From: Gammaproteobacteria bacterium
Lineage (GTDB): Bacteria > Pseudomonadota > Gammaproteobacteria > Pseudomonadales > JAUIET01
Direction of reading: 5' to 3'
DNA: 64,000 nt
NCBI GenBank assembly: GCA_030429735.1
Contig: JAUIET010000001.1
Span: 62,001 to 126,000 of the forward strand
Below the pieces are notes generated by a model, which worked only from the letters and a program-made list of their open reading frames with translations, was not told the origin of the DNA and did no database searches. Positions 47,647 to 60,683 of the stretch are shown here, piece after piece (position 1 is the stretch's first letter; each line of letters opens with the position of its first letter). The position numbers and the translations under genes are program-made.

Positions 47647-49776
47647 TCAGTCTGAGACACTCGATTCTGCAGGCTCAACCGTCGCCTCAGAGACGCCGTG
47701 CCACCAGTGCTCAGTCACCCGATACCAGTGATCGTTGGTGATGTAGCTGCGCCGCATGGCCTCGGCCATTTCCTCAAAATTTCCTGGCATGGCGGCATCG
47801 GCGCGATCATCCGGCAACGGAATACGAATTTTCCAGAGCTGGCCCCCTTCCAGTAACGCGAAAGCCTGCCCCTTGGGGAGCGTAACCATATCGGCGGCGG
47901 TAAGCATTGGCACTTCGGAGACACTGATCCGATCCTCATTGCGGGAACTGAAGTCGACGCCGGAACCGGGATCCGAAGAATCATCGACACCGGAGACACT
48001 CATCAGGGTGAAGACCTCCACCCGGGGCAGCTGTTCGGTCAGCATCTCGGCGGTAGCCAGCTCCTTCACCCGCAGCATCAGCATCGTATTGAAGTTGCCC
48101 GCCACCTGCCCGGCCTTAGCGCGGCTGCCGATGCGCGCCTCCACGTCCGACCAGGTCTGGGTATAGGCCGTAACCTGAAAACCCGCCCCACCCGCCTTGT
48201 TCAGCAAGGGCACGAACTCATCCCCGATCAGCTCGTTAAACTCATCCGCGTGCAATGATATGGTGGGCAGCGACTGTCGCGCGTTTTCCGGGAGTGACGT
48301 ATCGGAACTCGGCGCCACGACACCGTGCTTATAGATCGTGCCCGCGACGGATACCAGGTCCGCGAACATGGAATTGCCCACTGCACTGGCGACCGTGGTG
48401 TCGGTGAGAGCATCGAGCCCGACATACACGATGCCCTTGCGCCGCACCACCTCCATCCATTCGAAGATCGGCCTCGCATCCTGCTCGTCCTGGTAATCCG
48501 GCGAGATCAGCGCGGCGATGGTTCCGGTCGTCAGCTTTTCCATCAGGGGGCCGACGGAGCTGACGATCTTGTCGAAATAGGTCTTGTCGTATTTGAACGC
48601 CGAAATCAGGCCATCCAGAACGGGGTCGTAAATGGCCCTCTCCTGCAATAACCGCATACAGGCGATGGCTTCCATCGACCGGCCACGCAGCGCGTTGGGC
48701 AGGTTGCGCTCCTTGATGTCCGCGGCGCGCTCTTCCACCAGCGATGCCCAGGCGTCGATACCGGCCACCTCGGCGCAATGGCCGGCATACTCGACAAACA
48801 GGGGCTCGATGTCGTTGATGTAGCGGCGAATCTGTTGATAATCCGGTCTACGCTTCAAGGCCACCAGAGCACGCGCAATGATATTGACGAAGCGCCAGGC
48901 AAACTCCTTGAAGGCCGCGGAGTTCCCCTCGTTCGGTAATTGGTTGGCGATACGGGTCGCGACCTCGGTGATGCGCGAGAAGTTGCCAATGGCGTTATAG
49001 CGCGCCGACAGTTCGGGGAAGCCAAGATGGAATAGATAGAAGTTGTCAAGTCGACCGACGCGCTTGGCCTCGGCATAGATGCGACGTAAGAGATCGGCAT
49101 CCCCCTTGGGATCGAAGACGATGACGACATCGCCCCGGCGAATATCCTGGGTGATCAGCAGTTCGGCCAGGCGTGTCTTGCCAACACGCGTGGTGCCGAG
49201 TACCAGGGTGTGCCCGACGCGTTCACCGAGATCCATCCACACGGATTGCTCAAGGGGTTCAACGGCGTGTAGCGCCGGCTTGCCGCCGACCGCCGGTAGC
49301 GGCGCCAGCGGGTTCCAGCGGGAACGGCTGCGCAAGCCTTTGGCCAGCACCGAGAGCACGGGGATCGACTCCCAGGCTACTTCCTTTTGTCTCGCCCATT
49401 GATAGAGCCTGCCCGGTTGCACGTAACGCTGCACCTCGGGCTTTAGCGTATCGCGAAGCCGCTGCGTGTGTCGCTGTGTCCAGCGAAAGCCTTTGCCCAA
49501 AAACAGCTTGTGCCGACTGACGGGAATCTGCGCTGCCCGCACGCGAAACTCCGGCAGCCGCTTCATGTGATGCTGGTAGCGCAGAACGCGCCAGGCCTGA
49601 CGCCCACGCCACACGCCAAATCCGAAAAAGGTCATACCAGTCGCTGCCGCGATACCCGGTGGCATCATCAGGGCCCAGGGTGCCAACCAGGCCAGAGTGC
49701 CCGCCGCGAATGCGGTGGCGGTGGACCACAGCTCGACGGGAGGCCGCAACAATTCCTCCATCGGATGCGTGCTCAT
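47647..49776 (-). CDS. traD: Type IV coupling protein TraD
   Basis: Coupling ATPase that delivers the relaxase-DNA complex to the channel, 709 aa, TIGR03754 (TOL-type TraD). Membrane helices at about residues 20-58; Walker A LGTTRVGKTRLAELLI (about 199); Walker B VVIVFDPKGDADLL; a further motif ISLHADEFNELIGDEFVPLLNKAGGAG in parts with GFQVTAYTQTWSD. An acidic C-terminal tail. Two bases separate it from the DUF4400 gene. Confidence 0.92.
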   Translation of the reverse strand: MSTHPMEELLRPPVELWSTATAFAAGTLAWLAPWALMMPPGIAAATGMTFFGFGVWRGRQAWRVLRYQHHMKRLPEFRVRAAQIPVSRHKLFLGKGFRWTQRHTQRLRDTLKPEVQRYVQPGRLYQWARQKEVAWESIPVLSVLAKGLRSRSRWNPLAPLPAVGGKPALHAVEPLEQSVWMDLGERVGHTLVLGTTRVGKTRLAELLITQDIRRGDVVIVFDPKGDADLLRRIYAEAKRVGRLDNFYLFHLGFPELSARYNAIGNFSRITEVATRIANQLPNEGNSAAFKEFAWRFVNIIARALVALKRRPDYQQIRRYINDIEPLFVEYAGHCAEVAGIDAWASLVEERAADIKERNLPNALRGRSMEAIACMRLLQERAIYDPVLDGLISAFKYDKTYFDKIVSSVGPLMEKLTTGTIAALISPDYQDEQDARPIFEWMEVVRRKGIVYVGLDALTDTTVASAVGNSMFADLVSVAGTIYKHGVVAPSSDTSLPENARQSLPTISLHADEFNELIGDEFVPLLNKAGGAGFQVTAYTQTWSDVEARIGSRAKAGQVAGNFNTMLMLRVKELATAEMLTEQLPRVEVFTLMSVSGVDDSSDPGSGVDFSSRNEDRISVSEVPMLTAADMVTLPKGQAFALLEGGQLWKIRIPLPDDRADAAMPGNFEEMAEAMRRSYITNDHWYRVTEHWWHGVSEATVEPAESSVSD

Positions 49777-50348
49777 TGCCGAATACCGTAAGGGGTGATC
49801 AACACCGGGTAGCGATTGATGCCCAATGCGGCAGCCAGGTCACTCCCGGATCCCAGGGTGATAGACAAGCCTTGCGCCACCTCCGCGACCCGTCGCACAT
49901 CGTTTTCGGTCTCGGCTTGGATCAGCATACCCACGGCGCCAAGATCTTCCAGGACGTCTCGGTGCGAGGCCAACCACCGCAACGACGTGGCATCCGATCC
50001 GATCAGAAAAAACGGCCTTGGATTGCCTTGTGCCAGCCGCGCCAGCACCTCGGGACGCAAGGCACTGCCGGCGATATCGCCGACAGTTAGACCGGGTGAG
50101 CGCACTGGCAATAGATTCCGAAGATCTGCTGGACCATAACTGGACGAGGGATTGAGCGTGGCGCTTTCGGCTGGCTCGGACGATGGCGCGTCGTCCGCCA
50201 TGAGTGGCTCAAGCAACGGTACCAGTGGCCGCGTTTGACCGTTGTCGTAAATGAGCGTCAACTCGGCAAGCGCTTTAGCACTCAGGCCGAGCGAGAGTAA
50301 CAGTCCCAGCCCATAGATGAGCAACAGAGTTCGATTACTGAGCATCAT
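49773..50348 (-). CDS. ICE protein, PFL_4695 family (TIGR03765)
   Basis: A 191-aa exported protein. Signal peptide LLLIYGLGLLLSLGLSAKALA; mature part with LTLIYDNGQTRPLVPLLEPL, PVRSPGLTVGDIAGSA, PFFLIGSDATSLRWLASHR and GINRYPVLITPYGI. The ATG at 50348 has gaggagg 7 bp upstream and lies within the 3' end of the transglycosylase gene. Overlaps traD by 4 bp. Confidence 0.84.
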   Translation of the reverse strand: MMLSNRTLLLIYGLGLLLSLGLSAKALAELTLIYDNGQTRPLVPLLEPLMADDAPSSEPAESATLNPSSSYGPADLRNLLPVRSPGLTVGDIAGSALRPEVLARLAQGNPRPFFLIGSDATSLRWLASHRDVLEDLGAVGMLIQAETENDVRRVAEVAQGLSITLGSGSDLAAALGINRYPVLITPYGIRQ

Positions 50349-50895
50349 CGGGAACCTCCTCGGTCGCATCGAGCACTTGCGTCCAGCGCGCCTGTACACG
50401 GCGGCCATAGCGGTGTGCGCGGGCTGGATTATTCGGCGCGTGGTAACAACCGGCGCTCTCGATCCAGGTACGGTGTTCAATTAAGCAATCGCGCAACAGC
50501 GCGGCCGCCACCCGCATATTGTGGTAGGGATCGAGCGCCTGCCAGGATGAACCCAGGGATGACTGGTGGTAGCGCCAGCTGACCTGCATCAGCCCGATAT
50601 CCACGGACGCATCGGTGTCCGCCAACGCCGTCTGCAAGGCCTGCCACGCGCTCTGGCGAGACGGAAAATACTGCCCCTTGCCGTCGATATTCAGCGCCCA
50701 CGGCCAAGGACGAAACTCTCCATGACTCAGTGAACTTTGACCGCTCTCGGTGAGGGCTACCGCATAGAGCAGCGCAGGCGGCAGACCATATTCACCGGCG
50801 ACCTGCTGATACCCGGCAGGGACCGGTTGCGACTGCGCCGTCATCGGTCCACACAATAGGCCGACCGCACAGACGATGATCGAGCGGCTTGCCAT
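50335..50895 (-). CDS. Lytic transglycosylase (SLT domain)
   Basis: Periplasmic peptidoglycan lytic enzyme opening the wall for the conjugation channel, 186 aa. Signal peptide SIIVCAVGLLCGPMTAQSQ; catalytic glutamate in ALLYAVALTESGQSS (about residue 51); SVDIGLMQVSWRYH; LDPYHNMRVAAALLRDCL, the usual SLT arrangement. The ATG at 50895 fits better than the upstream GTG. Typical of the PFGI-1-type module between PFL_4693 and PFL_4695 members. Confidence 0.87.
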   Translation of the reverse strand: MASRSIIVCAVGLLCGPMTAQSQPVPAGYQQVAGEYGLPPALLYAVALTESGQSSLSHGEFRPWPWALNIDGKGQYFPSRQSAWQALQTALADTDASVDIGLMQVSWRYHQSSLGSSWQALDPYHNMRVAAALLRDCLIEHRTWIESAGCYHAPNNPARAHRYGRRVQARWTQVLDATEEVPDDAQ

Positions 50896-50907
50896 GACCA
50901 ACACTCG

Positions 50908-51720
50908 TCAAAACCGCGATACCGGCAGGGGTGCCAACTGACCCTCCCGGCGGAGTATCAGTACCGGCAGATCCTGCCCCTGCTGGCCCGTGTGGCCAGC
51001 GACCTGCTCGAACGCGCCCGCATCGATGTTCAGCGTCATTCGGTGGTCGCTGACCCACTGCGGATCGATCTGCTTCGCTGCCGCCCAATCGCGTATGCGG
51101 GTTTCCTCGCCGACGGACACATCGACCAGATACAAATCAATGCCGGAGTATTGTTTGATCTGACTGACCAGTCGCTCCAATACGGCGTCGCAACGCGGGC
51201 ACTGCGTCTCGGTAAAGAACAACACCCGGTCATCGGGTTGCCACGTCATTTTTTCGGTTGCTGTTTGATTTGGTGCGGCTAAGGCCAGGGCATTGGCATC
51301 GATAAGCAAGCCATTGGGGAACAGGCGCCGCTGGGCATCATCGTAAGCACGTTGGAACGCCAGGACCCGCTCGGCGTCGTCACGCATCATCACGGCCCAC
51401 TGTTCGGCGTAGCGACGGCGCTCATCAGCAGTACGTGCATGAATACCCAGGACCTCCAGAGGTGACAACTTCGCCGGGCTCACACTGCCCCGAATCCCCT
51501 GCATCAGGGATTCATACCGTTGCCACTCGGTGGCATCCAAACCCCACTGCTCTGCGCGGGAAGTTTGGGATTCGATCTGTTGGGTCGTCGACTGCTCGAC
51601 AGCCTGGAGCTTCGAAGTGTCCGAACCTGGCCCGGTGTCTGCGTTGATCGGCAATGTGATGCAAAGCCAGAATCCTAGAATCCCGATGCGCGAGGGTCGC
51701 GCTATGCGCTCAGCGGTCAT
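50908..51720 (-). CDS. ICE protein, PFL_4693 family, thioredoxin-like
   Basis: A 270-aa exported protein of TIGR03759. Signal peptide GILGFWLCITLPINADT; the thioredoxin-like half has DDRVLFFTETQCPRCDAVLERLV with a CPRC redox pair (about residue 175), then GIDLYLVDVSVGEETRIRDWA. Likely helps disulfide formation of the cysteine-rich TraU/TraH-like proteins. Confidence 0.85.
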   Translation of the reverse strand: MTAERIARPSRIGILGFWLCITLPINADTGPGSDTSKLQAVEQSTTQQIESQTSRAEQWGLDATEWQRYESLMQGIRGSVSPAKLSPLEVLGIHARTADERRRYAEQWAVMMRDDAERVLAFQRAYDDAQRRLFPNGLLIDANALALAAPNQTATEKMTWQPDDRVLFFTETQCPRCDAVLERLVSQIKQYSGIDLYLVDVSVGEETRIRDWAAAKQIDPQWVSDHRMTLNIDAGAFEQVAGHTGQQGQDLPVLILRREGQLAPLPVSRF

Positions 51721-51937
51721 CGTCGTTGCCCTGCTGATCGACCGTTACGGTCAGATCGCGTTGAACAATGGTCCGATGCGACGGGTCGCAAAGTTGTACT
51801 GGGGATTGACCGGTGACGCCCTGCTCACTCGTCAGCGTCGCCGTATGGACGGAACGCTGCTCCTGATCAGGTCGTTCAGACTCGACGCCAACGAAAAATG
51901 CAGTGACCAAAACAACAATTAGGAAAAACCCTTCCAT
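51710..51937 (-). CDS. Small membrane protein of the conjugation module
   Basis: A 75-aa protein with an N-terminal anchor EGFFLIVVLVTAFFVGVES (about 2-20) and a hydrophilic tail (VQRDLTVTVDQQGNDDDR). ggagg precedes the ATG by 9 bp; the start shares one base with the PilL stop (TAATG), and the 3' end overlaps the next gene by 11 bp. That tight packing supports it as a real gene. Family not recognised. Confidence 0.7.
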   Translation of the reverse strand: MEGFFLIVVLVTAFFVGVESERPDQEQRSVHTATLTSEQGVTGQSPVQLCDPSHRTIVQRDLTVTVDQQGNDDDR

Positions 51938-52431
51938 TAGTCTGCGCCTCCGGTTGATGTGTGGTGAGAGGCATCGGTGCAACGCTCGAAGGCAATGAGG
52001 CGATGCACAGGATCCTGAACCAGGTGAAACGCCGGGCCTACCATCAGCCCGATCACCGTCTTTAGCGGCATCGGCTCGAAAGCGCGATGCGCATTTGGCA
52101 ACGGCAGATCGAGCATGTCGATGGTTTCCTTAGACAGAACGGCATGATCTGCCAGGCGATAACCGGAATCGCGCAACAACCAGTGCATGGCATCACCGAC
52201 AGTATCGATGTCGTTCGGAATGGTGATCGACCTGGTGACCGACAACAGGTCTTGCTGTCCGGCTGTTGGCGCGACAGCAATGACGGAATAGCGGCCAATC
52301 TGGGCCTGAGCGCCTTTCACTGAATTCATTTGCTGTGCGGCCCATGCGGAGTGACCCGTGATGGCTACGCCAGTGCAGCACAACCATATCGTTAGGCGTT
52401 GCGGGATTGCGGAATGCTTGGACGAAGACAT
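51937..52431 (-). CDS. PilL-like ICE protein (TIGR03748)
   Basis: A 164-aa exported protein. Signal peptide LTIWLCCTGVAITGHSAWA. The mature part has IGRYSVIAVAPTAGQQDLLSV, TVGDAMHWLLRDSGYRLAD, LPLPNAHRAFEPMPLKTVIGLMVGPAFHLVQD and a final region, matching PilL/TcpQ-like toxin-co-regulated pilus domains. First gene of the conjugation operon. The 115 bp upstream run to the original 3' end of the integrase gene now displaced by the RIT element. Confidence 0.85.
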   Translation of the reverse strand: MSSSKHSAIPQRLTIWLCCTGVAITGHSAWAAQQMNSVKGAQAQIGRYSVIAVAPTAGQQDLLSVTRSITIPNDIDTVGDAMHWLLRDSGYRLADHAVLSKETIDMLDLPLPNAHRAFEPMPLKTVIGLMVGPAFHLVQDPVHRLIAFERCTDASHHTSTGGAD

Positions 52432-52546
52432 GTTTGGCTCTTGATCATGATGATGCGCGTCATGATCGCCAACCGATCCTCACCCGTGAACGATCAATCC
52501 GTTCCGTGGGTGTCGGGTTTTCTGTCAAACGGCTCTCTGCTAATGA

Positions 52547-52564
52547 CTATCGACCTAAATAAAC
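52547..52564 (-). pseudogene. Displaced original 3' end of the integrase gene
   Basis: On the minus strand these 18 nt read GTT TAT TTA GGT CGA TAG, or V-Y-L-G-R-stop, the same last five residues as the integrase across the RIT element (GTG TAT TTA GGA AGG TAA). The shared TATTTAGG is the insertion core. It is the natural gene end before insertion, apart from the uncertain third base of the valine codon. Confidence 0.8.
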
Positions 52565-52586
52565 CTTATGGAAAGCTTTTCATAAC

Positions 52587-52620
52587 GTGTATTTAGGAAA
52601 GTAGGTGTTTATGTAATGTT
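52587..52620. repeat. Left inverted repeat of RIT element
   Basis: 34 bp starting gtgtatttaggaa, matching the reverse complement of 56092-56125 at 29 of 34 positions. Just outside it, 52554-52575 is a near inverted copy of 52576-52597 (19 of 22), giving a palindrome centred on aag/ctt at 52575/52576. Confidence 0.85.
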
Positions 52621-52732
52621 GGGGATGAAAGTCCAATCATGTCAGGCACTTACCTCTGGAGTACATTGCATAATGTTTCCGGTAGCGTGGTTGTTGGCCA
52701 TTCGGCCAGCAACCACCGACGGAGAATTATGT

Positions 52733-53995
52733 ATGATTTCCCATCCAACTAAATCCAAAAAGCCGACACTGGATGAACTGGTTTTTCGTGCGTTAAGCCA
52801 GCTCCAGGTACACCACTACAATGCTCGCTCGATACGTCGCTATCAAACGGTCTGGCGCAAGCTCATCGCCTTTGCTGAACAGCAGGGTTACAAGGGCAAA
52901 CTTCGAGAACAACTCATCCTCGATTTTCTAGCACATCATCAGATCGATCCGCAGCGGCCCACGCAATCCTTCTCAGGATGGAAGAAGCACGCCGAATATA
53001 GTCTAAAGCTCTTGTGGCACTACCACCGCTTCGGCTATTTCGAGCGCAGCAATCTCCGGGCTGCCCGATACAGGATCCCAAGGGCGATGCGAAAGAGCCT
53101 GGAGGAGTACAACCAGTATTGTGACAAGGCGCGTCACCTCAGCCCCTGCACGCTCAACGAATACATGCGACAAACCAGCGCGTTCCTGGATTTCCTCAAT
53201 AAACGCGGCATCAAGCACTTCAGCGAGATCAGCCCGGAGGATTTATCAGACTTTGTCTATTCCTTATCGCACTATCGCCAAAAAACAGTAGCGAGCATTG
53301 TTTACTGCATACGGGTGTACCTCAGATTCCTCTTTCACAAAGGGTATTTGAATCAGGACTTGAGCGGCAGCGTGCCCAGTGTGAGTTTTTCCGAGCGGGC
53401 CAAGATTCCATCGGCCTGGGAGAAGACGCAACTTGAGCAGTTACTGAATAAAGTCGACCGGCGTGCACCGCGAGGCAAAAGGGATTATGCCATCATGCTG
53501 TTGGCGTGCCGCTTAGGCATCCGTTCCGGGGACATCAAAGCACTGACGCTTGATGATATCGATTGGATGGAGGAAACCATCACCTTCGTCCAGAGTAAAA
53601 CCCGGAGGTCATTGCGATTGCCGCTCACCGATGAAGTAGGCAACGCCTTGATCGACTACATCAAATCCGTGCGTCCGCAGACATCGCATCGTGAAGTCTT
53701 TCTCAGCCTCAAACCGCCGATCCGGCCGTTCGGAACCAACGCCCCCCTGAGTCATATTGTCAGTTACTGGCAGGAACTGGCAGGTATTCAATTTAGACGT
53801 CCGCAGCGGCGCGGTCTGCATTCCCTGAGGCATAGCCTGGCAACGCACTTGCTGGAAGACGACGTACCCTTCGCAGTCATTGCCGACATCTTGGGGCACG
53901 CCTCCATGGGGTCGACGATGATCTATGCCAAGGCCAGTGTTGAGTCATTGCGCGACGTTGCGCTACCGGTTCAGGAGGTGCACCATGCCAGCTAA
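52733..53995 (+). CDS. RIT tyrosine recombinase A
   Basis: A 420-aa tyrosine recombinase. The N-terminal SAM-like domain is around LDELVFRALSQLQVHHYNAR and a core-binding region follows. The catalytic half has LACRLGIRSGDIKALTLDDIDW (Arg I), SKTRRSLRLPLTDE (beta-hairpin lysine region), HSLRHSLATHLLEDD (H-x-x-R), ILGHASMGSTMIYAKAS (His and nucleophilic Tyr). The ATG at 52733 has ggag 8 bp upstream; ATGs further upstream lack a site. Overlaps RitB by 11 bp. Confidence 0.9.
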   Translation: MISHPTKSKKPTLDELVFRALSQLQVHHYNARSIRRYQTVWRKLIAFAEQQGYKGKLREQLILDFLAHHQIDPQRPTQSFSGWKKHAEYSLKLLWHYHRFGYFERSNLRAARYRIPRAMRKSLEEYNQYCDKARHLSPCTLNEYMRQTSAFLDFLNKRGIKHFSEISPEDLSDFVYSLSHYRQKTVASIVYCIRVYLRFLFHKGYLNQDLSGSVPSVSFSERAKIPSAWEKTQLEQLLNKVDRRAPRGKRDYAIMLLACRLGIRSGDIKALTLDDIDWMEETITFVQSKTRRSLRLPLTDEVGNALIDYIKSVRPQTSHREVFLSLKPPIRPFGTNAPLSHIVSYWQELAGIQFRRPQRRGLHSLRHSLATHLLEDDVPFAVIADILGHASMGSTMIYAKASVESLRDVALPVQEVHHAS

Positions 53996-54977
53996 GCGTA
54001 AATTGCTCGTCTACAAAAGCCCTCTGGCGCCACTGATGGAACGGCTGGTTCAGGAAAAACAGGCCGCCGGCTACAAGTATCACACGCCGGCGGAGGTGCT
54101 CCAGAGCCTCGACCAGTTCCTGTGCAGCACGGCTGTGAAGCCGAATGAACTGCCCAAATCCATCGTGATGCAGTGGCTAGCACGCTATCCCCAGGACAAG
54201 GCCTCGACGCAACAGCGCCGGATTATCCTGGTGCGTCAACTGGCTCGGTTAATGATCAGGCTGGGCTATCCGGCATACCTTCCGCCTGACGGCATAGGGC
54301 CGCGGCGATCGTACGCCTTCTCTCCAAGGATCTTCACTCACGAGGAGGTGCGCCGATTCCTGCACGCCGTTGACGGCCTGCCGCCGAGCGCAAAATCACC
54401 CCACCGGCAGATCATCCTGCCTGAGGTCTTTCGACTGTTGTATGGTTGTGGCTTCCGGTTGAGCGAAGTCCTGAACCTGAGAATCCGCGATGTCGACCTG
54501 AATCAAGGTGTCATCACAGTGCGGCAGGGCAAGTTCGCCAAAGACCGCCTCGTCCCACCTGCTGTGGACATGGTTGAACGACTGAGGCGCTACGACGAAC
54601 AGCTCGAAAAAAGTGCCCTGGCAAGCCGCCAGCCGGATGCGTACTTCTTCCCATCGGCGAGACAGGCTGCCTGGGCTTGTTCAACGATTTATCACCTCTT
54701 CCGCAGAGCACTGCTGCAATGTGGCATTCCTCATGGTGGCCGGGGCAAAGGGCCCAGAGTGCATGACCTGCGTCATACGTTTGCCGTTCACCGGCTCCTG
54801 CGATGGTATGAGGAAGGTGCCGATCTGAATGCCAAGATTCCCTTCCTGGTGGCATACCTGGGCCACAAGGATTTTACCGGCACGCAGAAATACCTACACC
54901 TCACCGCTGAGCTATTCCCCAACCTGACAGCGCGCATGAATGAGCAGTTTGGCGGTGTCATACCGGCGGGGAGGTGA
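53985..54977 (+). CDS. RIT tyrosine recombinase B
   Basis: A 330-aa tyrosine recombinase. Catalytic segments: LLYGCGFRLSEVLNLRIRDVD (Arg I), RQGKFAKDRLVPP, HDLRHTFAVHRLLRWYEE (H-x-x-R) and AYLGHKDFTGTQKYLHLT (His and Tyr). The ATG at 53985 is preceded by aggagg. Overlaps RitA; its stop lies 2 bp before the RitC start. Confidence 0.9.
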   Translation: MPAKRKLLVYKSPLAPLMERLVQEKQAAGYKYHTPAEVLQSLDQFLCSTAVKPNELPKSIVMQWLARYPQDKASTQQRRIILVRQLARLMIRLGYPAYLPPDGIGPRRSYAFSPRIFTHEEVRRFLHAVDGLPPSAKSPHRQIILPEVFRLLYGCGFRLSEVLNLRIRDVDLNQGVITVRQGKFAKDRLVPPAVDMVERLRRYDEQLEKSALASRQPDAYFFPSARQAAWACSTIYHLFRRALLQCGIPHGGRGKGPRVHDLRHTFAVHRLLRWYEEGADLNAKIPFLVAYLGHKDFTGTQKYLHLTAELFPNLTARMNEQFGGVIPAGR

Positions 54978-54979
54978 TC

Positions 54980-55987
54980 ATGAAGCCAACGACTTTATCG
55001 GTACACGTCAGTCACTTCCTCAACCACTACCTGGCCAGCCAACGTAATTTGAGCCCCAACACCATCAAAGCCTATCGGGATGTATTTGTATTGCTCCTGC
55101 GGTTTTGCCGGGATAGTAAAGGGGGCGCCGTGGAAAGGCTTGAGCTGCAGCAGATCGATGTGGCGCTGGTAGATGCGTTCCTCGATTACCTGACGCAGGA
55201 ACGGCGTTGCTCTGACCGCACCGTCAATCAACGGCTGGCTGTATTGCACGCGTTCTTCCGATACCTGCAGGTTGAGGAACCCTCTCTGATACAGCAGTGC
55301 CAGCGAATACTGGCGATCCCATTACGTCGCTTTGTGCGTCATGAGGTGGGTTATTTGCCAAAAGAACTCCTTGCAGCATTATTGGCGCAGCCGGATCTGG
55401 ATCGCTCCGATGGCAGGCGGGATGCGGTGTTACTCAGTGTGCTCTATGACACCGGTGCCCGGGTGCAGGAACTCATTGATCTGACAGCGGGTGACGTGCG
55501 GCTCGAGGCTCCCGCGCAGGTGAGAATCCTGGGCAAGGGACGCAAGGTGCGCGTGGTGCCGCTGATGGATAACACCACAGGATTTCTGCAGCAGTACTTC
55601 GACGAAAGCAATCTGGCGCTGCCCGAGAACTATAGCCGCTCATTGTTCTTAAATCGGCAAGGAAACGCGCTGACGCGAGTGGGCGTCAACTACATCCTGC
55701 AAAAACACTTGCAGCAGGTACGAGAAGCCCATCCTGAGTTCACACAAACAGTCAGCCCCCATACGCTCAGACATACAAAGGCCATGCATCTGGTCCAGGG
55801 CGGGGTGTCCCTGGATATCGTGCGTGACTTCTTAGGCCACGTCGATATCAAGACCACCGAGCTGTATGCGAGAGCCAACCTTGAAATGAAGCGGGCAGCC
55901 ATTGAGAAAGTCAGCCCGACACCCACACCGGACATCCCCTCATGGAAAGCCAACAAATCCTTACTGCAATGGCTGCAAGGATTATGA
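54980..55987 (+). CDS. RIT tyrosine recombinase C
   Basis: A 335-aa tyrosine recombinase closest in layout to XerC/D. N-terminal HFLNHYLASQRNLSPNTIKAYRD; catalytic LYDTGARVQELIDLTAGDVRL, GKGRKVRVVPLMDNT, SPHTLRHTKAMHLVQGGVS and DFLGHVDIKTTELYARAN. The ATG at 54980 follows a strong ggggaggtg site. All three RIT proteins keep the catalytic residues, so the element may be active. The 104 bp after its stop lead to the right inverted repeat. Confidence 0.9.
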   Translation: MKPTTLSVHVSHFLNHYLASQRNLSPNTIKAYRDVFVLLLRFCRDSKGGAVERLELQQIDVALVDAFLDYLTQERRCSDRTVNQRLAVLHAFFRYLQVEEPSLIQQCQRILAIPLRRFVRHEVGYLPKELLAALLAQPDLDRSDGRRDAVLLSVLYDTGARVQELIDLTAGDVRLEAPAQVRILGKGRKVRVVPLMDNTTGFLQQYFDESNLALPENYSRSLFLNRQGNALTRVGVNYILQKHLQQVREAHPEFTQTVSPHTLRHTKAMHLVQGGVSLDIVRDFLGHVDIKTTELYARANLEMKRAAIEKVSPTPTPDIPSWKANKSLLQWLQGL

Positions 55988-56091
55988 AGGGGTGAAGGAA
56001 ATGATTTTTTATCGTGGCCCACCCCGGTGGACGAAATATTATGCAAAGACAATTGGAGGCAAGCGTATGAATGTACTGAGATTTTATCTGC

Positions 56092-56125
56092 AACTTTACA
56101 TAAGTACTTACCTTCCTAAATACAC
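56092..56125. repeat. Right inverted repeat of RIT element
   Basis: 34 bp whose complement resembles the left repeat (29 of 34). Its outermost part encodes the last residues V-Y-L-G-R and stop of the integrase gene on the minus strand, including the insertion core cctaaata at 56115-56122. Confidence 0.85.
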
Positions 56126-56974
56126 AGCGCTGATCTGCTCGCGGGTATGGCCGAGTTCGCGACTGATGATGAGTCGTGCCTGGTGATCCAGCTTGCGTTG
56201 ATCGGCGCTGAGACTGGCAGCGATCGGCCCACCCGCGGCAGGACAGGCCCAGCCAGTCAATTGCTCAAAGCGTAACTGGGCGTAGGCATGGCGCAGTCCA
56301 TGCAGCTTCGACAGCCCCGCTTGTGTGGTATGTCGCTCGTAGGCTCTCAACTGCTGGATATAGCTTTTCTGGGAAGGGATCAGGGATCCATTCCCGGCCA
56401 ATCGGTGCGCACGATCCAGGACGGTTCGCTGGTCCTGACGGAGGATCGGCACGACGCGCGACTTGCCGCCCTTGGTCCAGGACGCCTTGAGCCGGATATG
56501 ATCGCCCTGATCGGCGAAACCGGGCATGAATTTGATGGCCTCCTCTCTTCGCAAACCGAAGGAGCGCTGCAGCTCCAGGCTCATACGCACGTAGTCATCC
56601 TGGATACTGGTCAGTGCCTGGCTATCGACCGCGACCGCCTTAGACTCGTTACTGACGAATTGCCGGTCGGGGATGCCGTAGAACTCGTTCGAGCGGGCAA
56701 TGACATTGCGCCGATCCACTTTCGCTGCCCACCAGCGTAGGCAGTTCATGCGGTTCTTGATGGTACCGGCCGCCATGCCCTCACCGAGCCAGCGTTTTAC
56801 CAGGGCATCCACATGCTTTGGCTTCAGGGATCGGGTGGTCATCCGCCGATACCCCATCTCCTGCAACTGATTCGCGATCTGGTTGAGCATACGCGCACGG
56901 TTGGCTTGCGTGCTGTAGCTGCCATCGCGGTTGCGTTTGCACAATTGTTTCAATTGGTAGTTCAGGTCTCTCAT
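56108..56974 (-). CDS. Integrase_1-type tyrosine recombinase
   Basis: A 288-aa integrase of the PF12834/PF12835 type found in ICEs. N-terminal SAM-like part LNYQLKQLCKRNRDGSYST with QANRARMLNQIANQLQEMGYRRM; catalytic part SLELQRSFGLRREEAIKFMPGF (Arg), KASWTKGGKSRVVPIL, KLHGLRHAYAQLRFEQLTGW (H-x-x-R) and ISRELGHTREQISAVYLGR (His and Tyr). The start at 56974 has ggaag upstream. The final arginine and stop now come from the RIT element, but the protein is unchanged. Probably not the enzyme that inserted the ICE at the tRNA, since it lies far inside the element. Confidence 0.86.
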   Translation of the reverse strand: MRDLNYQLKQLCKRNRDGSYSTQANRARMLNQIANQLQEMGYRRMTTRSLKPKHVDALVKRWLGEGMAAGTIKNRMNCLRWWAAKVDRRNVIARSNEFYGIPDRQFVSNESKAVAVDSQALTSIQDDYVRMSLELQRSFGLRREEAIKFMPGFADQGDHIRLKASWTKGGKSRVVPILRQDQRTVLDRAHRLAGNGSLIPSQKSYIQQLRAYERHTTQAGLSKLHGLRHAYAQLRFEQLTGWACPAAGGPIAASLSADQRKLDHQARLIISRELGHTREQISAVYLGR

Positions 56975-57010
56975 CGTGTACTTCCATATCTGGTAAGTGT
57001 TTATGACCAA

Positions 57011-57809
57011 CCGCAGGCACGTAGCCTGACAGGGTCCGCCGAGGCGGAAGGGTCAAGGGACACTACTCCCCGTTCGACCTGATAAGCCTGGTCGCAGGCA
57101 ACCTGGCTGCTCTTCTGTTGAAGATGGTGCCGGGTAAACCAAGGGCTCGAAGAGCCGTCGTTGATGGTGAGCGTTTCACCTCCTGTTTAATGGGCGGAAC
57201 CATCGGTCCGCATGTTGAAAGAAACCGTCGATGTAACGGCGTGCTGAAAGTCGGCTGATTGCCAGCCGGATTTTTGGCGATAGCCAGGTTGAAGCGAGGA
57301 CGACGTCCTGCAATTGAAGAAGCATTGAAGATGAGCTGCAGCCGAGGCTGTGCGCCGTTGAAGCTCTGACGACGCTGTTGTTGTTTCTGCCATTTTGGAT
57401 GGCGAGGGCAACTTCCCCCATCCACGTTACCGCCGTGGCCGCGTATGAAACTCTCTGCGATGCATGGCCGCCAGTATAGCCAGACTGAATTCGCGCTGAA
57501 CGCATCAATTCGAGCGCAAGCCGTTGTTGTTCCGGGCTCCGCCGCCCTCGTCACTACCCCGCTTCGCTTGCCAGTGACGAGGGCTTCGTGCGAATCAACC
57601 CCCTCGCCAGGTCTTCGACCTGTCATGGGGGTCGAGCAGGCAACGTTAATCGAGCCGTGGTTACAGTGGAACCAAGACAAAAGTGAAGGATAGGTTAGGT
57701 ATTGGCACTTCCAGGTGGAGGCAGTATTAAGTGAAATGGTGTGCCGGCGGAGATGAGGTGCCACTTTATCCCAAGTGGCCAGGGCAAGGAGCCGATTGTA
57801 TCGGCGCTA
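57011..57809. other. About 800-bp structured non-coding region of unknown role
   Basis: No ORF here shows protein-like features. Several hairpins are present: a perfect 12-bp stem at 57544-57555/57573-57584 (gccctcgtcact), aggtc-ttc-gacct within 57601-57640 bracketed by ccccc and ggggg, and ggctc-gaa-gagcc at about 57144-57156. It lies between the integrase and the DUF6573 gene. Possibilities are a regulatory RNA, oriT or an intron remnant; the sequence shows no group II domain V. Confidence 0.5.
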
Positions 57810-58235
57810 TTAATCTTCATTTGGCAGCATGATCGTGACGACCGGTTCTCCGGCATCGCCGGGGCCAACCATCAGTTTCAAGCTCACCTCCTCGTCTTCT
57901 ATCGAGTGTCCGTCTCTGGGCACTCGATACAGCGAGAAGGATAACCGATCACCAGGAGCCGTGGCCGTCCGAATGGCGTAGAACGCCATAAACAGCACGT
58001 CCCACAAACGACCGGCCTCGTCCTGGTGAACCTGAGAACGGCTATCCCCCTCAGTCCAGGCAACGCAATCGTACCAGGCCGCACGTGTCAGTGCCGCCGG
58101 CCACTTGAAACCGGCTTCACGCGCCATACTGGTGACATCGACCAAGACGCCGTCATCGATAGCCTGTGCTCGGCTATAACTTGAAACCACAGGACCAAAG
58201 ACGTCCTCTATCGATTCCCTTGATTTAGTTTTCAT
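57810..58235 (-). CDS. DUF6573 family protein
   Basis: A 141-aa ICE protein of unknown function. The family's core is visible: YSRAQAIDDGVLVDVTSMAREAGFKWPAALTRAAWYDCVAWTEGDSR in consecutive pieces, QVHQDEAGRLWDVLFMAFYAI, FSLYRVPRDG and GPGDAGEPVVTIMLPNED at the end. The ATG at 58235 follows ggag by 6 bp; an ATG 12 bp upstream is the alternative. A structured leader precedes it. Confidence 0.83.
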   Translation of the reverse strand: MKTKSRESIEDVFGPVVSSYSRAQAIDDGVLVDVTSMAREAGFKWPAALTRAAWYDCVAWTEGDSRSQVHQDEAGRLWDVLFMAFYAIRTATAPGDRLSFSLYRVPRDGHSIEDEEVSLKLMVGPGDAGEPVVTIMLPNED

Positions 58236-58265
58236 AAGATTCTCCATGAGGATATAAACTGAAAT

Positions 58266-58318
58266 CACGGAGCACCTCCTTCCCATTGGGAAGCAGGGAC
58301 TCCCCAATGGGTTGAGTA
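58266..58318 (-). ncRNA. Structured leader upstream of DUF6573 gene (radC-motif-like)
   Basis: Perfect 9-bp stem cccattggg (58282-58290) with cccaatggg (58303-58311). On the transcribed strand the order is ACTCAACC, stem, GGGGAGTCCCTGCTTCC, stem, then AAGGAGGTGCTCCG. The same order occurs in the leaders at 58866-58910 and 59404-59452. Confidence 0.6.
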
Positions 58319-58326
58319 AACGGCAT

Positions 58327-58842
58327 TTAAAGCAATCCGCTCTCGGCAAACGATAGCGATTCACCGGAAGTCACGATGAAATGATCCAGCACACGGATGT
58401 CCACCAGTGCCAGAGCATCTTTCAACCGCTGGGTTATCGCCTTATCAGAATGACTAGGTTCAGCGACACCGCTCGGATGATTATGAAAAAACAGCACCGC
58501 AGCAGCATTGAGCGTCAGTGCCTGCTGCACCACCACACGTGGGTACACTGATGCGCCGTCAATCGTGCCTTGAAACAGCTCGGCGGCTTCAATGACGTGA
58601 TGCCGGTTATCCAGATACACGCAACCAAACACTTCCGCTTTCCTATCCGCCAACAACATCCGCAAATATTCACGGGTACGATTGGGGCTGGGCAGCTCGG
58701 TTCCTGGTCGATGCATCTCCCCCAAAACTGCGAGGGCTAATTCCAACAGGGATTGCTTTTCCAGGTCGTTCAGCGATGCGATCTTCAGCGCCGCCACACG
58801 GTTCTTATTACTTGCCTTTGCAAGCGATGATTTCGAAGCCAT
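58327..58842 (-). CDS. radC: RadC-like JAB-domain protein
   Basis: A 171-aa RadC family protein (MPN/JAB fold). It has VFGCVYLDNRHHVIEAAELFQGT, YPRVVVQQALTLNAAAVLFFHNHPSG (the H-x-H metal site), SHSDKAITQRLKDAL (catalytic D) and VRVLDHFIVTS-like end (here IRVLDHFIVTSGESLSFAESG). Mobile-element RadCs like this lack the HhH domain of full-length RadC. A metalloprotease-like role is possible; the molecular function is not established. Confidence 0.9.
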   Translation of the reverse strand: MASKSSLAKASNKNRVAALKIASLNDLEKQSLLELALAVLGEMHRPGTELPSPNRTREYLRMLLADRKAEVFGCVYLDNRHHVIEAAELFQGTIDGASVYPRVVVQQALTLNAAAVLFFHNHPSGVAEPSHSDKAITQRLKDALALVDIRVLDHFIVTSGESLSFAESGLL

Positions 58843-58865
58843 GACTGGTCTCCTTTAAAGGTGCG

Positions 58866-58910
58866 GGGAGACCAATCCCACGAGGAATAGGTTTCCTCGC
58901 TAGGTTGGAA
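58866..58910 (-). ncRNA. Structured leader upstream of radC (radC-motif-like)
   Basis: Stem cgagga (58881-58886) with tcctcg (58894-58899), extended by ccaa (58872-58875) with ttgg (58905-58908). Transcribed-strand order is CCAACC, stem, GAGGAAACCTATTCCTC, stem, then TGGGATTGGTCTCCCCG. Similar to the leaders of the DUF6573 and STY4534-type genes. Confidence 0.6.
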
Positions 58911-58947
58911 GACTGGCAGCATCGGTGGATGCTGCCAGGTATTGCAG

Positions 58948-59373
58948 TTAGGCGACGGCGTTGCTGGTCGCTGACGTTCCCAGGAATGGCTTACCGTCTA
59001 CCTTGATCCATTGGAATCGCAGCAGACGTGACTTCAAGCCAACACCTGTCGTACCGGCACGTTCGCCCTGTTTAAAGGTAAACGTTTGAGCCTGCAGATC
59101 GCTGAGGTGAAATCCCACCAACACTTTCATGTCGGCTTCGACCGCAGGCATCAGCTGGCGCACCAGGTCCTTTGCTTCCTCGCCCGATACCACACAATCA
59201 AAATGGGTATGCTGGACGTTGTCGGCCGGCCCTCGTAGCGCAGCGATTGTGACACTGAGAAAGGGAAATCCGTTCTCTGGCGTCACTTCGCGTACACGGT
59301 TGAGATAACCGATGCCGTGTATATCAAGATCGAAATACTTCGGTTTTTCAGACGTAGTTTGTCTACTGGTCAT
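58948..59373 (-). CDS. STY4534-type ICE replication protein (DUF3577)
   Basis: A 141-aa OB-fold-like protein: YFDLDIHGIGYLNRVREVTPENGFPFLSVTIAALRG at the N-terminus, HFDCVVSGEEAKDLVRQL, VLVGFHLSDLQAQTFTF and GVGLKSRLLRFQWIKVDGKPF. This pattern matches DUF3577/STY4534 family proteins, found with ICE replication genes. A single-strand binding role is suggested for the family but not shown by the sequence. aaggaga lies before the ATG; a hairpin leader is upstream. Confidence 0.83.
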   Translation of the reverse strand: MTSRQTTSEKPKYFDLDIHGIGYLNRVREVTPENGFPFLSVTIAALRGPADNVQHTHFDCVVSGEEAKDLVRQLMPAVEADMKVLVGFHLSDLQAQTFTFKQGERAGTTGVGLKSRLLRFQWIKVDGKPFLGTSATSNAVA

Positions 59374-59403
59374 GACACATTCTCCTTGAACATGAGTGAA
59401 TGC

Positions 59404-59452
59404 CGGAGAACGCGATTCCCTGGCGGGAAGTCGTTTCCCGGCAGGGTGAGTA
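59404..59452 (-). ncRNA. Structured leader upstream of STY4534-type gene (radC-motif-like)
   Basis: Stem ccctggcggg (59418-59427) with cccggcaggg (59437-59446), one G-G mismatch, 9-nt loop. On the transcribed strand: ACTCACC, stem, GGGAAACGACTTCCC, stem, then GGGAATCGCGTTCTCCG. Third copy of the same layout. The rest of 59453-59562 is empty. Confidence 0.6.
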
Positions 59453-59562
59453 AAGTCAGGGCAAGCCCAGACGTTGGATTGACGGTAAAACCGCGATGTC
59501 GCTTACACAATCCGATGACATCTTCTTTGCCACTGAGACCGCAGTGGCCACGTACAAAGTCG

Positions 59563-60651
59563 TTACGCCGCCCTCCCGGGGCCATCGCAGACAAACTGCA
59601 GGTACTTGAGCATGCCACGTGCATTGGCAAAGGCGGCATGGTCGGCAATTGTCTGGTTGGGAAACCAGTTGGCAATATCGTCAGACAATGCCGCACTGCC
59701 ACCCCCGACGAACAGCACCCGGTCCAGCTCCACCCCGAGCCCGAGCTTGCGGCGTGTTTCCGTGTAGAGCCTTTCCACCAACTCCCGCTTCGCCAACTTC
59801 ACCAGGTCGGACACGTCGTGATCCTTCCCATGAAGCCGTAATCTGTGCGTTTCAACGGCCCTAGCGATACTTTGCTCACCCAGTTCATCGACATCAAATT
59901 GTTCCTGGATGCCGTTCGCCACATGTATCTTGACATTGAGCATGCCGCGATTCAGAGAGCCCGACGATTCGTGGACTATGCCCTGATCCCGGACCACCAC
60001 GTAGTCAGTCGTCCGACCACCAATATCGACAATGGCAATGGGCGCGTTGACGCGATCGGCATCAAGCGTTACGCCATCATCTGCCGTGACGATCACGAAG
60101 TCATACCAGGCAGCCAAAGCCTCCGGAATCACCTCGTGGTACGCAATACTGGTTTTGAGCGTTCGCTGCGCTGACGGGTGCGAAACGACAGGCTCTACCG
60201 TCAATTTCAGGCCGTCTCTCTTTGCCTCGATCGCCTGTCGCCGTTGCTGACCATCATTGCGGTAGAAAGCTGAGACCGGTAATCCGGTGACCACGTGCAC
60301 AGATCGACCCGAGAGGCCAGCTTGATGTAATGCATGTTGAACGATCACCCGGTTTAGTGCCGAACCCGGATATTCATTGAATTGGGTGGGCTCACCATCC
60401 ACCGCGCCAACGGAGTACACGCTGCCCTCGGTTTCGTACTCAAAGATTTTCTGCTCCTCCTCCCGAATCCAGGTGACACCCGCTGACCCCATCCGCGCCC
60501 GGGACGGCACCGCCACAAGACGTCCGTCCGGCAGCGCCACTTTGGTGTACGCATAGCCGTCATCCAGGCCTACCGGAACAACTTCCATGGGGTCGACCTG
60601 TAACGGTGATAGGTCATCGTCAATATATTTTTCGTCGATTAGTTCGGTCAT
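59563..60651 (-). CDS. ParM/StbA-like actin ATPase
   Basis: A 362-aa actin-like protein for element segregation or stability. GLDDGYAYTKVALPDG is the phosphate-1 loop; the connecting region has VVTGLPVSAFY; phosphate 2 is IAIVDIGGRTTDYVVVRDQ; the adenosine motif is DRVLFVGGGSAAL near residue 320. The ATG at 60651 has agga 8 bp upstream. Next to a small possible partner gene, giving a parMR-like arrangement; ICEs that replicate autonomously often carry such genes. Confidence 0.87.
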   Translation of the reverse strand: MTELIDEKYIDDDLSPLQVDPMEVVPVGLDDGYAYTKVALPDGRLVAVPSRARMGSAGVTWIREEEQKIFEYETEGSVYSVGAVDGEPTQFNEYPGSALNRVIVQHALHQAGLSGRSVHVVTGLPVSAFYRNDGQQRRQAIEAKRDGLKLTVEPVVSHPSAQRTLKTSIAYHEVIPEALAAWYDFVIVTADDGVTLDADRVNAPIAIVDIGGRTTDYVVVRDQGIVHESSGSLNRGMLNVKIHVANGIQEQFDVDELGEQSIARAVETHRLRLHGKDHDVSDLVKLAKRELVERLYTETRRKLGLGVELDRVLFVGGGSAALSDDIANWFPNQTIADHAAFANARGMLKYLQFVCDGPGRAA

Positions 60652-60683
60652 GGAGTACATCCTGGCTTATCTATCAAGTATCG

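What the first reader, a model, noticed from the sequence alone, without database searches (positions are those of the whole stretch)
52547..56125. RIT element inserted precisely in the last codons of an integrase gene, preserving its C-terminus
Seen: the integrase ends GTG TAT TTA GGA AGG TAA inside the right repeat, and on the far side of the element the minus strand reads GTT TAT TTA GGT CGA TAG. Both give V-Y-L-G-R-stop. The shared TATTTAGG (cctaaata on plus) occurs in direct orientation at both element borders. Known: Integrase_1 proteins tend to end in a conserved YLG motif. Inference: this RIT element uses the conserved codons at the end of tyrosine recombinase genes as its attachment site and carries replacement codons, so insertion does not damage the host gene.
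Basis: partly seen in the sequence, partly recalled or inferred. Interest (0 to 1): 0.82.

Follow-up and report, generated by a model that had tools for sequence, protein, structure and literature searches.

The report
Recombinase-trio element targeting recombinase active-site codon
A small bacterial mobile element made of three recombinase genes sits exactly at the codon for the catalytic tyrosine of another recombinase gene and supplies the codons behind it, and related elements do the same in many other recombinase genes.

Summary
An unnamed relative (G179) holds the uninterrupted integrase, ending GTG TAT TTA GGT CGA TAG, with both window flanks joined (96.2% over 1,995 nt, no gap). The insert is a RIT (recombinase-in-trio) element, 3,561 bp from core to core. 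The shared TATTTAGG begins with the codon of the integrase's catalytic tyrosine; the element end restores Y-L-G-R-stop.

This is a lineage rule. In the window's RIT clade, 41 of 48 loci with enough flank carry the body and/or severed tail of a tyrosine-recombinase gene cut at that codon (three of the 41 doubtful by eye), in both orientations. Hosts include Integrase_1 proteins and integron integrases. The same script gave one false hit in 52 distant RITs. In 15 of 18 loci with a located tail-side core, the tail restarts with TAY exactly 28 nt further out, mostly across a palindrome. Distant RITs split other conserved motifs, such as the IstB P-loop and group II intron PQGG.

Sparing of the host gene holds here and for short-tailed integrases; elsewhere tails of up to 35 residues are replaced. 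Mobility and mechanism are inferred. No paper found in the held library describes this targeting.

The parts
52547..52561 (-). severed end of the host integrase gene (TAT TTA GGT CGA TAG), beginning with its own Tyr codon; holds the left border core CCTAAATA 52554-52561
   Evidence: continuous with the body of the gene in G179
52562..52589 (.). 28-nt palindrome between the host tail and the left inverted repeat
   Evidence: same length in the related loci
52590..52656 (.). left inverted repeat; begins TATTTAGG and would encode Y-L-G-K-stop if joined to a gene body
   Evidence: arms 52587-52656 / 56056-56125, 71% complementary
52733..53995 (+). ritA, tyrosine recombinase, 420 aa
   Evidence: PF00589
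53985..54977 (+). ritB, tyrosine recombinase, 330 aa
   Evidence: PF00589
54980..55987 (+). ritC, tyrosine recombinase, 335 aa; 66% identical to RitC of pHG1
   Evidence: (PF00589)
56056..56122 (.). right inverted repeat; its outer end is the right core CCTAAATA (56115-56122) and carries the replacement codons TAT TTA GGA AGG TAA (minus strand)
56108..57010 (-). host integrase gene (Phage_int_SAM_2 + Integrase_1); native up to 56123, last codons supplied by the element

Best explanation
It is a RIT element whose lineage inserts site-specifically at the DNA that encodes the active-site tyrosine of tyrosine recombinases. Shown by comparison: insertion falls at the catalytic Tyr codon; the gene body is joined directly to one inverted repeat, whose first codons supply Tyr plus a new C-terminus; the severed gene end restarts with its own TAY codon beyond a 28-nt palindrome; either end of the element can be the one joined. 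Inferred: the excised circle joins inverted repeat, 28-nt palindrome and inverted repeat, so that its attachment site is one large palindrome with two inverted Tyr-codon cores 28 nt apart. RitA/B/C bring one of the two cores together with the host motif (G-H-x8-Y, in DNA GGNCAY, 24 nt, TAY) and exchange strands over about 6 bp, the four bases before the Tyr codon plus its TA. Use of one core or the other gives the two orientations, which explains why the gene body meets an inverted repeat and the palindrome lies on the tail side. The conserved catalytic codons are a lasting, widespread target on mobile vehicles. In short-tailed integrases such as this one the vehicle keeps a predicted intact integrase.
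For: Empty site in G179. 41 of 48 clade loci with enough flank positive, against 1 (false by eye) of 52 distant RITs. Recombinase domains in 21 of the 24 motif-bearing host bodies scanned; two hosts are integron integrases above cut-off, matched to profile position 298 of 315. TAY at +28 in 15 of 18 loci where +20 to +36 was allowed. Body and tail on opposite ends in 15 loci, 9 with the body at the ritA end and 6 at the ritC end. The four host bases before the Tyr codon recur beside the palindrome (43 and 45 of 68 against 25 by permutation). The clade is one branch of 52 rows, SH-aLRT 100.
Against: Five informative clade loci show neither half (L071, L077, L081, L083, L084 or L097, six in all; L098 has lost its ends). 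L063 and L094 have a recombinase body but no TAY tail at +28. L058, L075 and L086 have palindromes on both sides. No Pfam match for three bodies (L046, L059, L076). No excision or integration was observed; the circle, its two cores and the 6-bp overlap are inferred. Why host bases are copied on the repeat side of the palindrome is unexplained.
Confidence: 0.82

Rival explanations
1. The neighbouring recombinase is a fourth gene that belongs to the RIT element and travels with it.
For: A recombinase gene adjoins most elements of the clade.
Against: The host gene exists without the element in G179, G105 and G159; it adjoins either end; it is of different families (Integrase_1, Phage_integrase, integron integrase); its tail lies on the other side of the element.
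Confidence: 0.02
2. Insertion is little specific, and only insertions that leave the host recombinase nearly intact survive.
For: In short-tailed hosts the replacement is nearly neutral, and native and supplied tail lengths correlate (rho 0.73, n 15, relatedness not corrected). A few clade members lie in unrelated sites (L071, L077, L081, L083, L084, L097).
Against: The junction is at one codon, with a fixed 28-nt spacing; 8 of 15 hosts lose 17-35 native residues; survival alone would not select recombinase genes over intergenic DNA.
Confidence: 0.06
3. The target rule holds, but the route is a folded single strand, as for integron cassettes or strand-biased circularizing elements, not a double-stranded circle with two alternative cores.
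For: The 28-nt palindrome and the flanking inverted repeats could fold into one long hairpin; host bases recur beside the palindrome, reminiscent of the 6-bp footprint told in PMC10214605 (passages).
Against: A palindromic double-stranded site accounts for the junctions and both orientations; no strand bias could be tested here.
Confidence: 0.3

Closest known systems
RIT (recombinase in trio) elements of Cupriavidus metallidurans CH34 and C. necator pHG1
   Same: Three adjacent tyrosine-recombinase genes, about 3.5 kb, terminal inverted repeats and a palindrome near an end (PMC3414803, passages); pHG1's RitC is 66% identical and that RIT also sits at a recombinase Tyr codon.
   Different: Papers seen report insertions in radC, an IS66 tnpA and a Tn6049 transposase gene and call target specificity untested (PMC10214605); none of the passages seen reports the Tyr codon, the two-core geometry or replacement codons.
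[quoted passage not shown]
   Same: Several recombinase genes in a row; preferred gene targets with altered C-termini (PMC5385486, passages).
   Different: GInts need a fourth gene, ginD, and favour the ends of ssb genes; no fourth gene is listed here.
Strand-biased circularizing elements and Tn554
   Same: Multi-protein tyrosine-recombinase elements with a roughly 6-bp footprint (PMC10214605, passages).
   Different: Their gene sets hold non-catalytic partners (Tfp, Srap, TnpC); here all three proteins carry the recombinase domain.
Inteins, homing endonucleases and mobile introns (recalled, no call)
   Same: They too settle in the most conserved, often active-site codons of genes.
   Different: Neither splicing nor an endonuclease here: a tyrosine-recombinase element that replaces codons at DNA level.

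Membership tests
RIT element | three adjacent tyrosine-recombinase genes, short overlaps | tested here: met
   ritA/ritB overlap 11 bp; ritB/ritC overlap 4 bp (GTG start) or 2 bp apart (ATG start)
RIT element | RitC related to that of a named RIT | tested here: met
   66% identity over 335 aa to pHG1, whose RITs are named in PMC2864759
RIT element | catalytic residues in all three proteins | tested here: met
   by eye: HxxRH, GH and Tyr in each; PF00589 in each
RIT element | terminal inverted repeats and a palindrome near an end | tested here: met
RIT element | mobility | tested here: inconclusive
   an empty site in a relative shows gain or loss; no movement was observed
GInt | fourth conserved gene ginD | tested here: not met
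   no fourth gene in the ORF list of 80 aa and more; shorter frames not examined
Strand-biased circularizing element | Tfp lacking the catalytic Tyr, and Srap | tested here: not met
   all three keep the motif with Tyr
Tn554 | third protein TnpC, not a recombinase | tested here: not met
   the third gene has PF00589

The most novel reading that the evidence does not exclude
RIT elements as a whole are homing-like DNA transposons: each lineage has come to insert into the codons of one conserved, often catalytic motif (recombinase Tyr or HxxR, IstB or ParA P-loop, group II reverse-transcriptase PQGG, IS66, DDE-transposase and methylase motifs), in many cases in genes of other mobile elements, using a palindromic attachment site with two alternative cores.
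Probability: 0.65. Interest if true: 0.92.

Novelty: new variant of a known kind. Interest (0 to 1): 0.85.

Why it matters
The 2023 table seen here lists RIT target specificity as not tested (PMC10214605). A fixed target codon, a fixed 28-nt geometry and an empty site make it testable: sites can be predicted in genomes, minimal substrates built, and the question why three recombinases are needed addressed. It also shows mobile elements that parasitise other mobile elements at their most conserved point: nearly neutral in short-tailed integrases, truncating in integron integrases, and splitting in IstB, ParA and reverse transcriptases, so that RITs may switch their vehicles off. For annotation it explains recombinase genes that end a few codons behind the tyrosine beside a recombinase trio.

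Tried and rejected
A DNA search of 194 related genomes with the whole element gave matches in 8, the own genome included; beyond it one other RIT (G069, 65%) and the 26-nt border match of the empty site; the rest were short. A loose motif scan was too permissive (150 of 1,126 control stretches) and was replaced by the script. Alignment of the inverted repeats failed for eroded or interrupted loci. In one search, L072 had its core set wrongly (one search finds its tail at +28); L063 and L094 stay without a TAY tail. In one search the row L074 is misregistered (right reading) and L096 shows only four host bases. In one search the 'body' of L086 and the second 'tail' of L057 are false by eye. The matrix scan and its tally (257 of 262) are nearly circular: the matrix spells G-H-x8-Y and the loci are rich in recombinases. 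ArdC as a target (L049, L055) is adjacency only. 25 of 52 distant RITs could not be assigned, many for lack of flank. Not analysed: viral loci L149-L153 (5 of 18, weak matches) and 29 of the 40 plasmid rows listed.

Considered and rejected: a fourth cargo gene (empty sites, either end, different families); chance (fixed codon and spacing); YLG as the target (hosts also read YTHV, YSHL, YLHV).

Literature: searches (listings). Passages seen of PMC3414803, PMC10214605, PMC5385486, PMC2864759 and PMC8138268. Not held: Ricker 2013 and Nielsen 2017, so a description there cannot be excluded; Van Houdt 2009 was not looked up.
Full report
What is in the window. Three adjacent tyrosine-recombinase genes (ritA 52733-53995, ritB 53985-54977, ritC 54980-55987; PF00589 in each) lie between inverted repeats. 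Convergent to them lies an integrase gene with Phage_int_SAM_2 and Integrase_1 domains (56108-57010 minus). Its last codons, TAT TTA GGA AGG TAA, lie in the right inverted repeat. CCTAAATA stands at 52554-52561 and 56115-56122, 3,561 bp apart. Between the left copy and the left inverted repeat lie 28 nt that form a palindrome around AAGCTT, and the left repeat begins TATTTAGG, inverted relative to the border copies.

The empty site. A search of 194 related genomes with the integrase found matches in 30, the own genome included. In G179 contig 71 the protein is 99% identical and the gene ends GTG TAT TTA GGT CGA TAG, followed by the window's own left flank. With the two window flanks joined, 1,995 nt align at 96.2% without a gap across the junction. 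G105 and G159 carry integrases 88% and 85% identical that also end AVYLGR-stop.

The tyrosine. In the host protein the Y of V-Y-L-G-R follows the H of L-G-H by nine residues (RELGHTREQISAVY). That is the place of the nucleophile tyrosine in this enzyme family (established knowledge, recalled). The core TATTTAGG thus begins with the catalytic codon.

A rule of the lineage. In the RitC tree (104 rows, quick method) the window falls in a branch of 52 rows (SH-aLRT 100). A script asked, for the 53 loci of this clade (one has too short a RitC for the tree), whether a recombinase motif ends at a Tyr codon 115-165 nt outside ritA or ritC, and whether a TAY codon restarts 28 nt further out across a palindrome. 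Five loci had too little flank. Of the other 48, 41 were positive: 13 body only, 12 tail only, 16 both. Seven were negative. By eye the body of L086 is false (it has host tails on both sides), L062 and one side of L075 abut another RIT end, and the tails of L075 and L118 are weak; without L062, L075 and L118 the count is 38 of 48. Some loci are near copies of each other (L057/L102, L060/L061, L077/L083, L089/L091/L098). The same script on 52 distant RIT loci gave one body, false by eye, and no tail.

Who the hosts are. Of 24 motif-bearing bodies scanned, 21 have Pfam recombinase domains; L046, L059 and L076 have none. Seven further flank frames without the motif, scanned, gave ParB_N (L071), MerR (L091), an N-terminal integrase domain just before ritA (L097) or nothing. 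In a scan of 81 flank frames taken without regard to the motif, Phage_integrase and Integrase_1 were the commonest families, 11 members each. L064 and L110 are integron integrases above NCBIfam's cut-off, matched to position 298 of 315. The tails of L078 and L090 look like integron integrases too (recalled motif, YTHV...SP).

The geometry. In one search, 29 loci with a body were read; in 18 a core was located on the other side. In 15 of these the severed tail restarts with TAY exactly 28 nt beyond the core, although +20 to +36 was allowed (L073 also has a chance TAY at +21). L072 had its core set wrongly and shows +28; L063 and L094 show no TAY there. Reading on gives the C-termini expected: YLGR-stop, YTHVMNRGGRGVRSP, YSHLSPEHLRF, YLHV. 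In the 15 loci with both halves (L086 left out) the body meets the inverted repeat and the palindrome lies on the tail side; the body is at the ritA end in 9 and at the ritC end in 6. L058, L075 and L086 have palindromes on both sides. The four host bases before the Tyr codon recur beside the palindrome more often than by permutation, on the tail side (45 of 68) and on the repeat side (43 of 68), against 25 expected, 0 of 20,000 as high (17 rows, one misregistered). I read this as an overlap of about 6 bp, NNNNTA. Why the copy also appears on the repeat side is unexplained; flipping of the element in place would do it.

Replacement codons. Native and supplied tails were compared in 15 loci. 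Seven short native tails (2-5 residues behind Tyr) are replaced by 2-3 residues: window and L079 YLGR by YLGR, L088 YVGR by YLGR, L057 YLGR by YCG. Eight long tails (17-35) are replaced by 3 to 26 residues. Lengths correlate (rho 0.73, p 0.002, relatedness not corrected). The sparing of the host gene is thus real for the integrase type of the window and not general.

Target DNA. Over 29 host bodies G at -30 (27), G at -29 (29), C at -27 (28), A at -26 (29) and C at -8 (27) are nearly invariant, and TA begins all 23 tails listed there: GGNCAY, 24 nt, TAY, the codons of G-H-x8-Y. Recognition of this DNA would suffice; a test on the whole genome was not possible.

Beyond the clade. Distant RITs split other conserved motifs (Pfam). 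IstB P-loop: L119-L123, the profile broken at 103|104 in L120 and 102|103 in L123. ParA P-loop: L140 (tail by Pfam, body by eye). Group II intron reverse transcriptase at PQGG or its variants: L048, L127, L138 (profile broken at 122-124), L133, and by eye or with weak matches L124, L130, L132. IS66 transposase: L050. C5-methylase: L142, L146. Amidoligase: L106, L108, L115, by eye L139. A KG-x-V/I-E stretch that looks like the DDE-transposase glutamate motif (recalled): L116 (match below cut-off), L112, L117. Recombinase HxxR: L147, and by eye L053. I could assign 27 of 52; 19 of them have a Pfam match above cut-off, two of these (L049, L055, ArdC) by adjacency only. Targets cluster on the tree: all 12 label groups, 'unknown' and 'other' included, need 30 changes against 56 in shuffles, 0 of 200 as low; near copies favour this. 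Earlier reports of RITs in radC twice and in an IS66 tnpA (PMC2864759, passage) fit.

Exceptions. L071 lies in a ParB_N-like gene; L077, L081 and L083, from one genome, have altered ends and unrelated sites; L084 and L097 have no TAY tail; L098 has lost its ends. The target can shift or relax.

What is not shown. No excision, integration or protein function was observed. A description in Ricker 2013 or Nielsen 2017 (not held) cannot be excluded; searches of the held library gave none.

Noticed in passing
window 47650-60660: The element lies among conjugation and plasmid-type genes: TraG/TrwB coupling protein, DUF2859, SLT transglycosylase, RadC, DUF3577, ParM/StbA-like protein, as in an integrative conjugative element.
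   Followed up: no
L064, L110 (and by their tails L078, L090): RITs inside integron integrase genes, cut at the catalytic Tyr codon.
   Followed up: partly
L086; L053 1889-2773 and 5951-6793: L086 has the same host tail on both sides of the RIT, L053 two recombinase genes truncated at the same HxxRH on both sides: possibly products of recombination between two RITs.
   Followed up: partly
L062, L075: The palindrome runs straight into the inverted repeat of another RIT end, as expected for the circle junction or a tandem insertion.
   Followed up: partly
L077, L081, L083: RITs of one Pseudomonadales genome with changed outer ends (GCATTATGTGG, CGATTGAGG) in unrelated sites: a possible shift of target.
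   Followed up: partly
L089, L091, L098: The same MerR-containing region lies directly behind ritC (frame ends 23 nt from it) and has replaced the right end of the element.
   Followed up: no
W, L057, L064, L068, L070, L078: Host bases before the Tyr codon recur on the inverted-repeat side of the palindrome, 3.5 kb from the host copy.
   Followed up: partly
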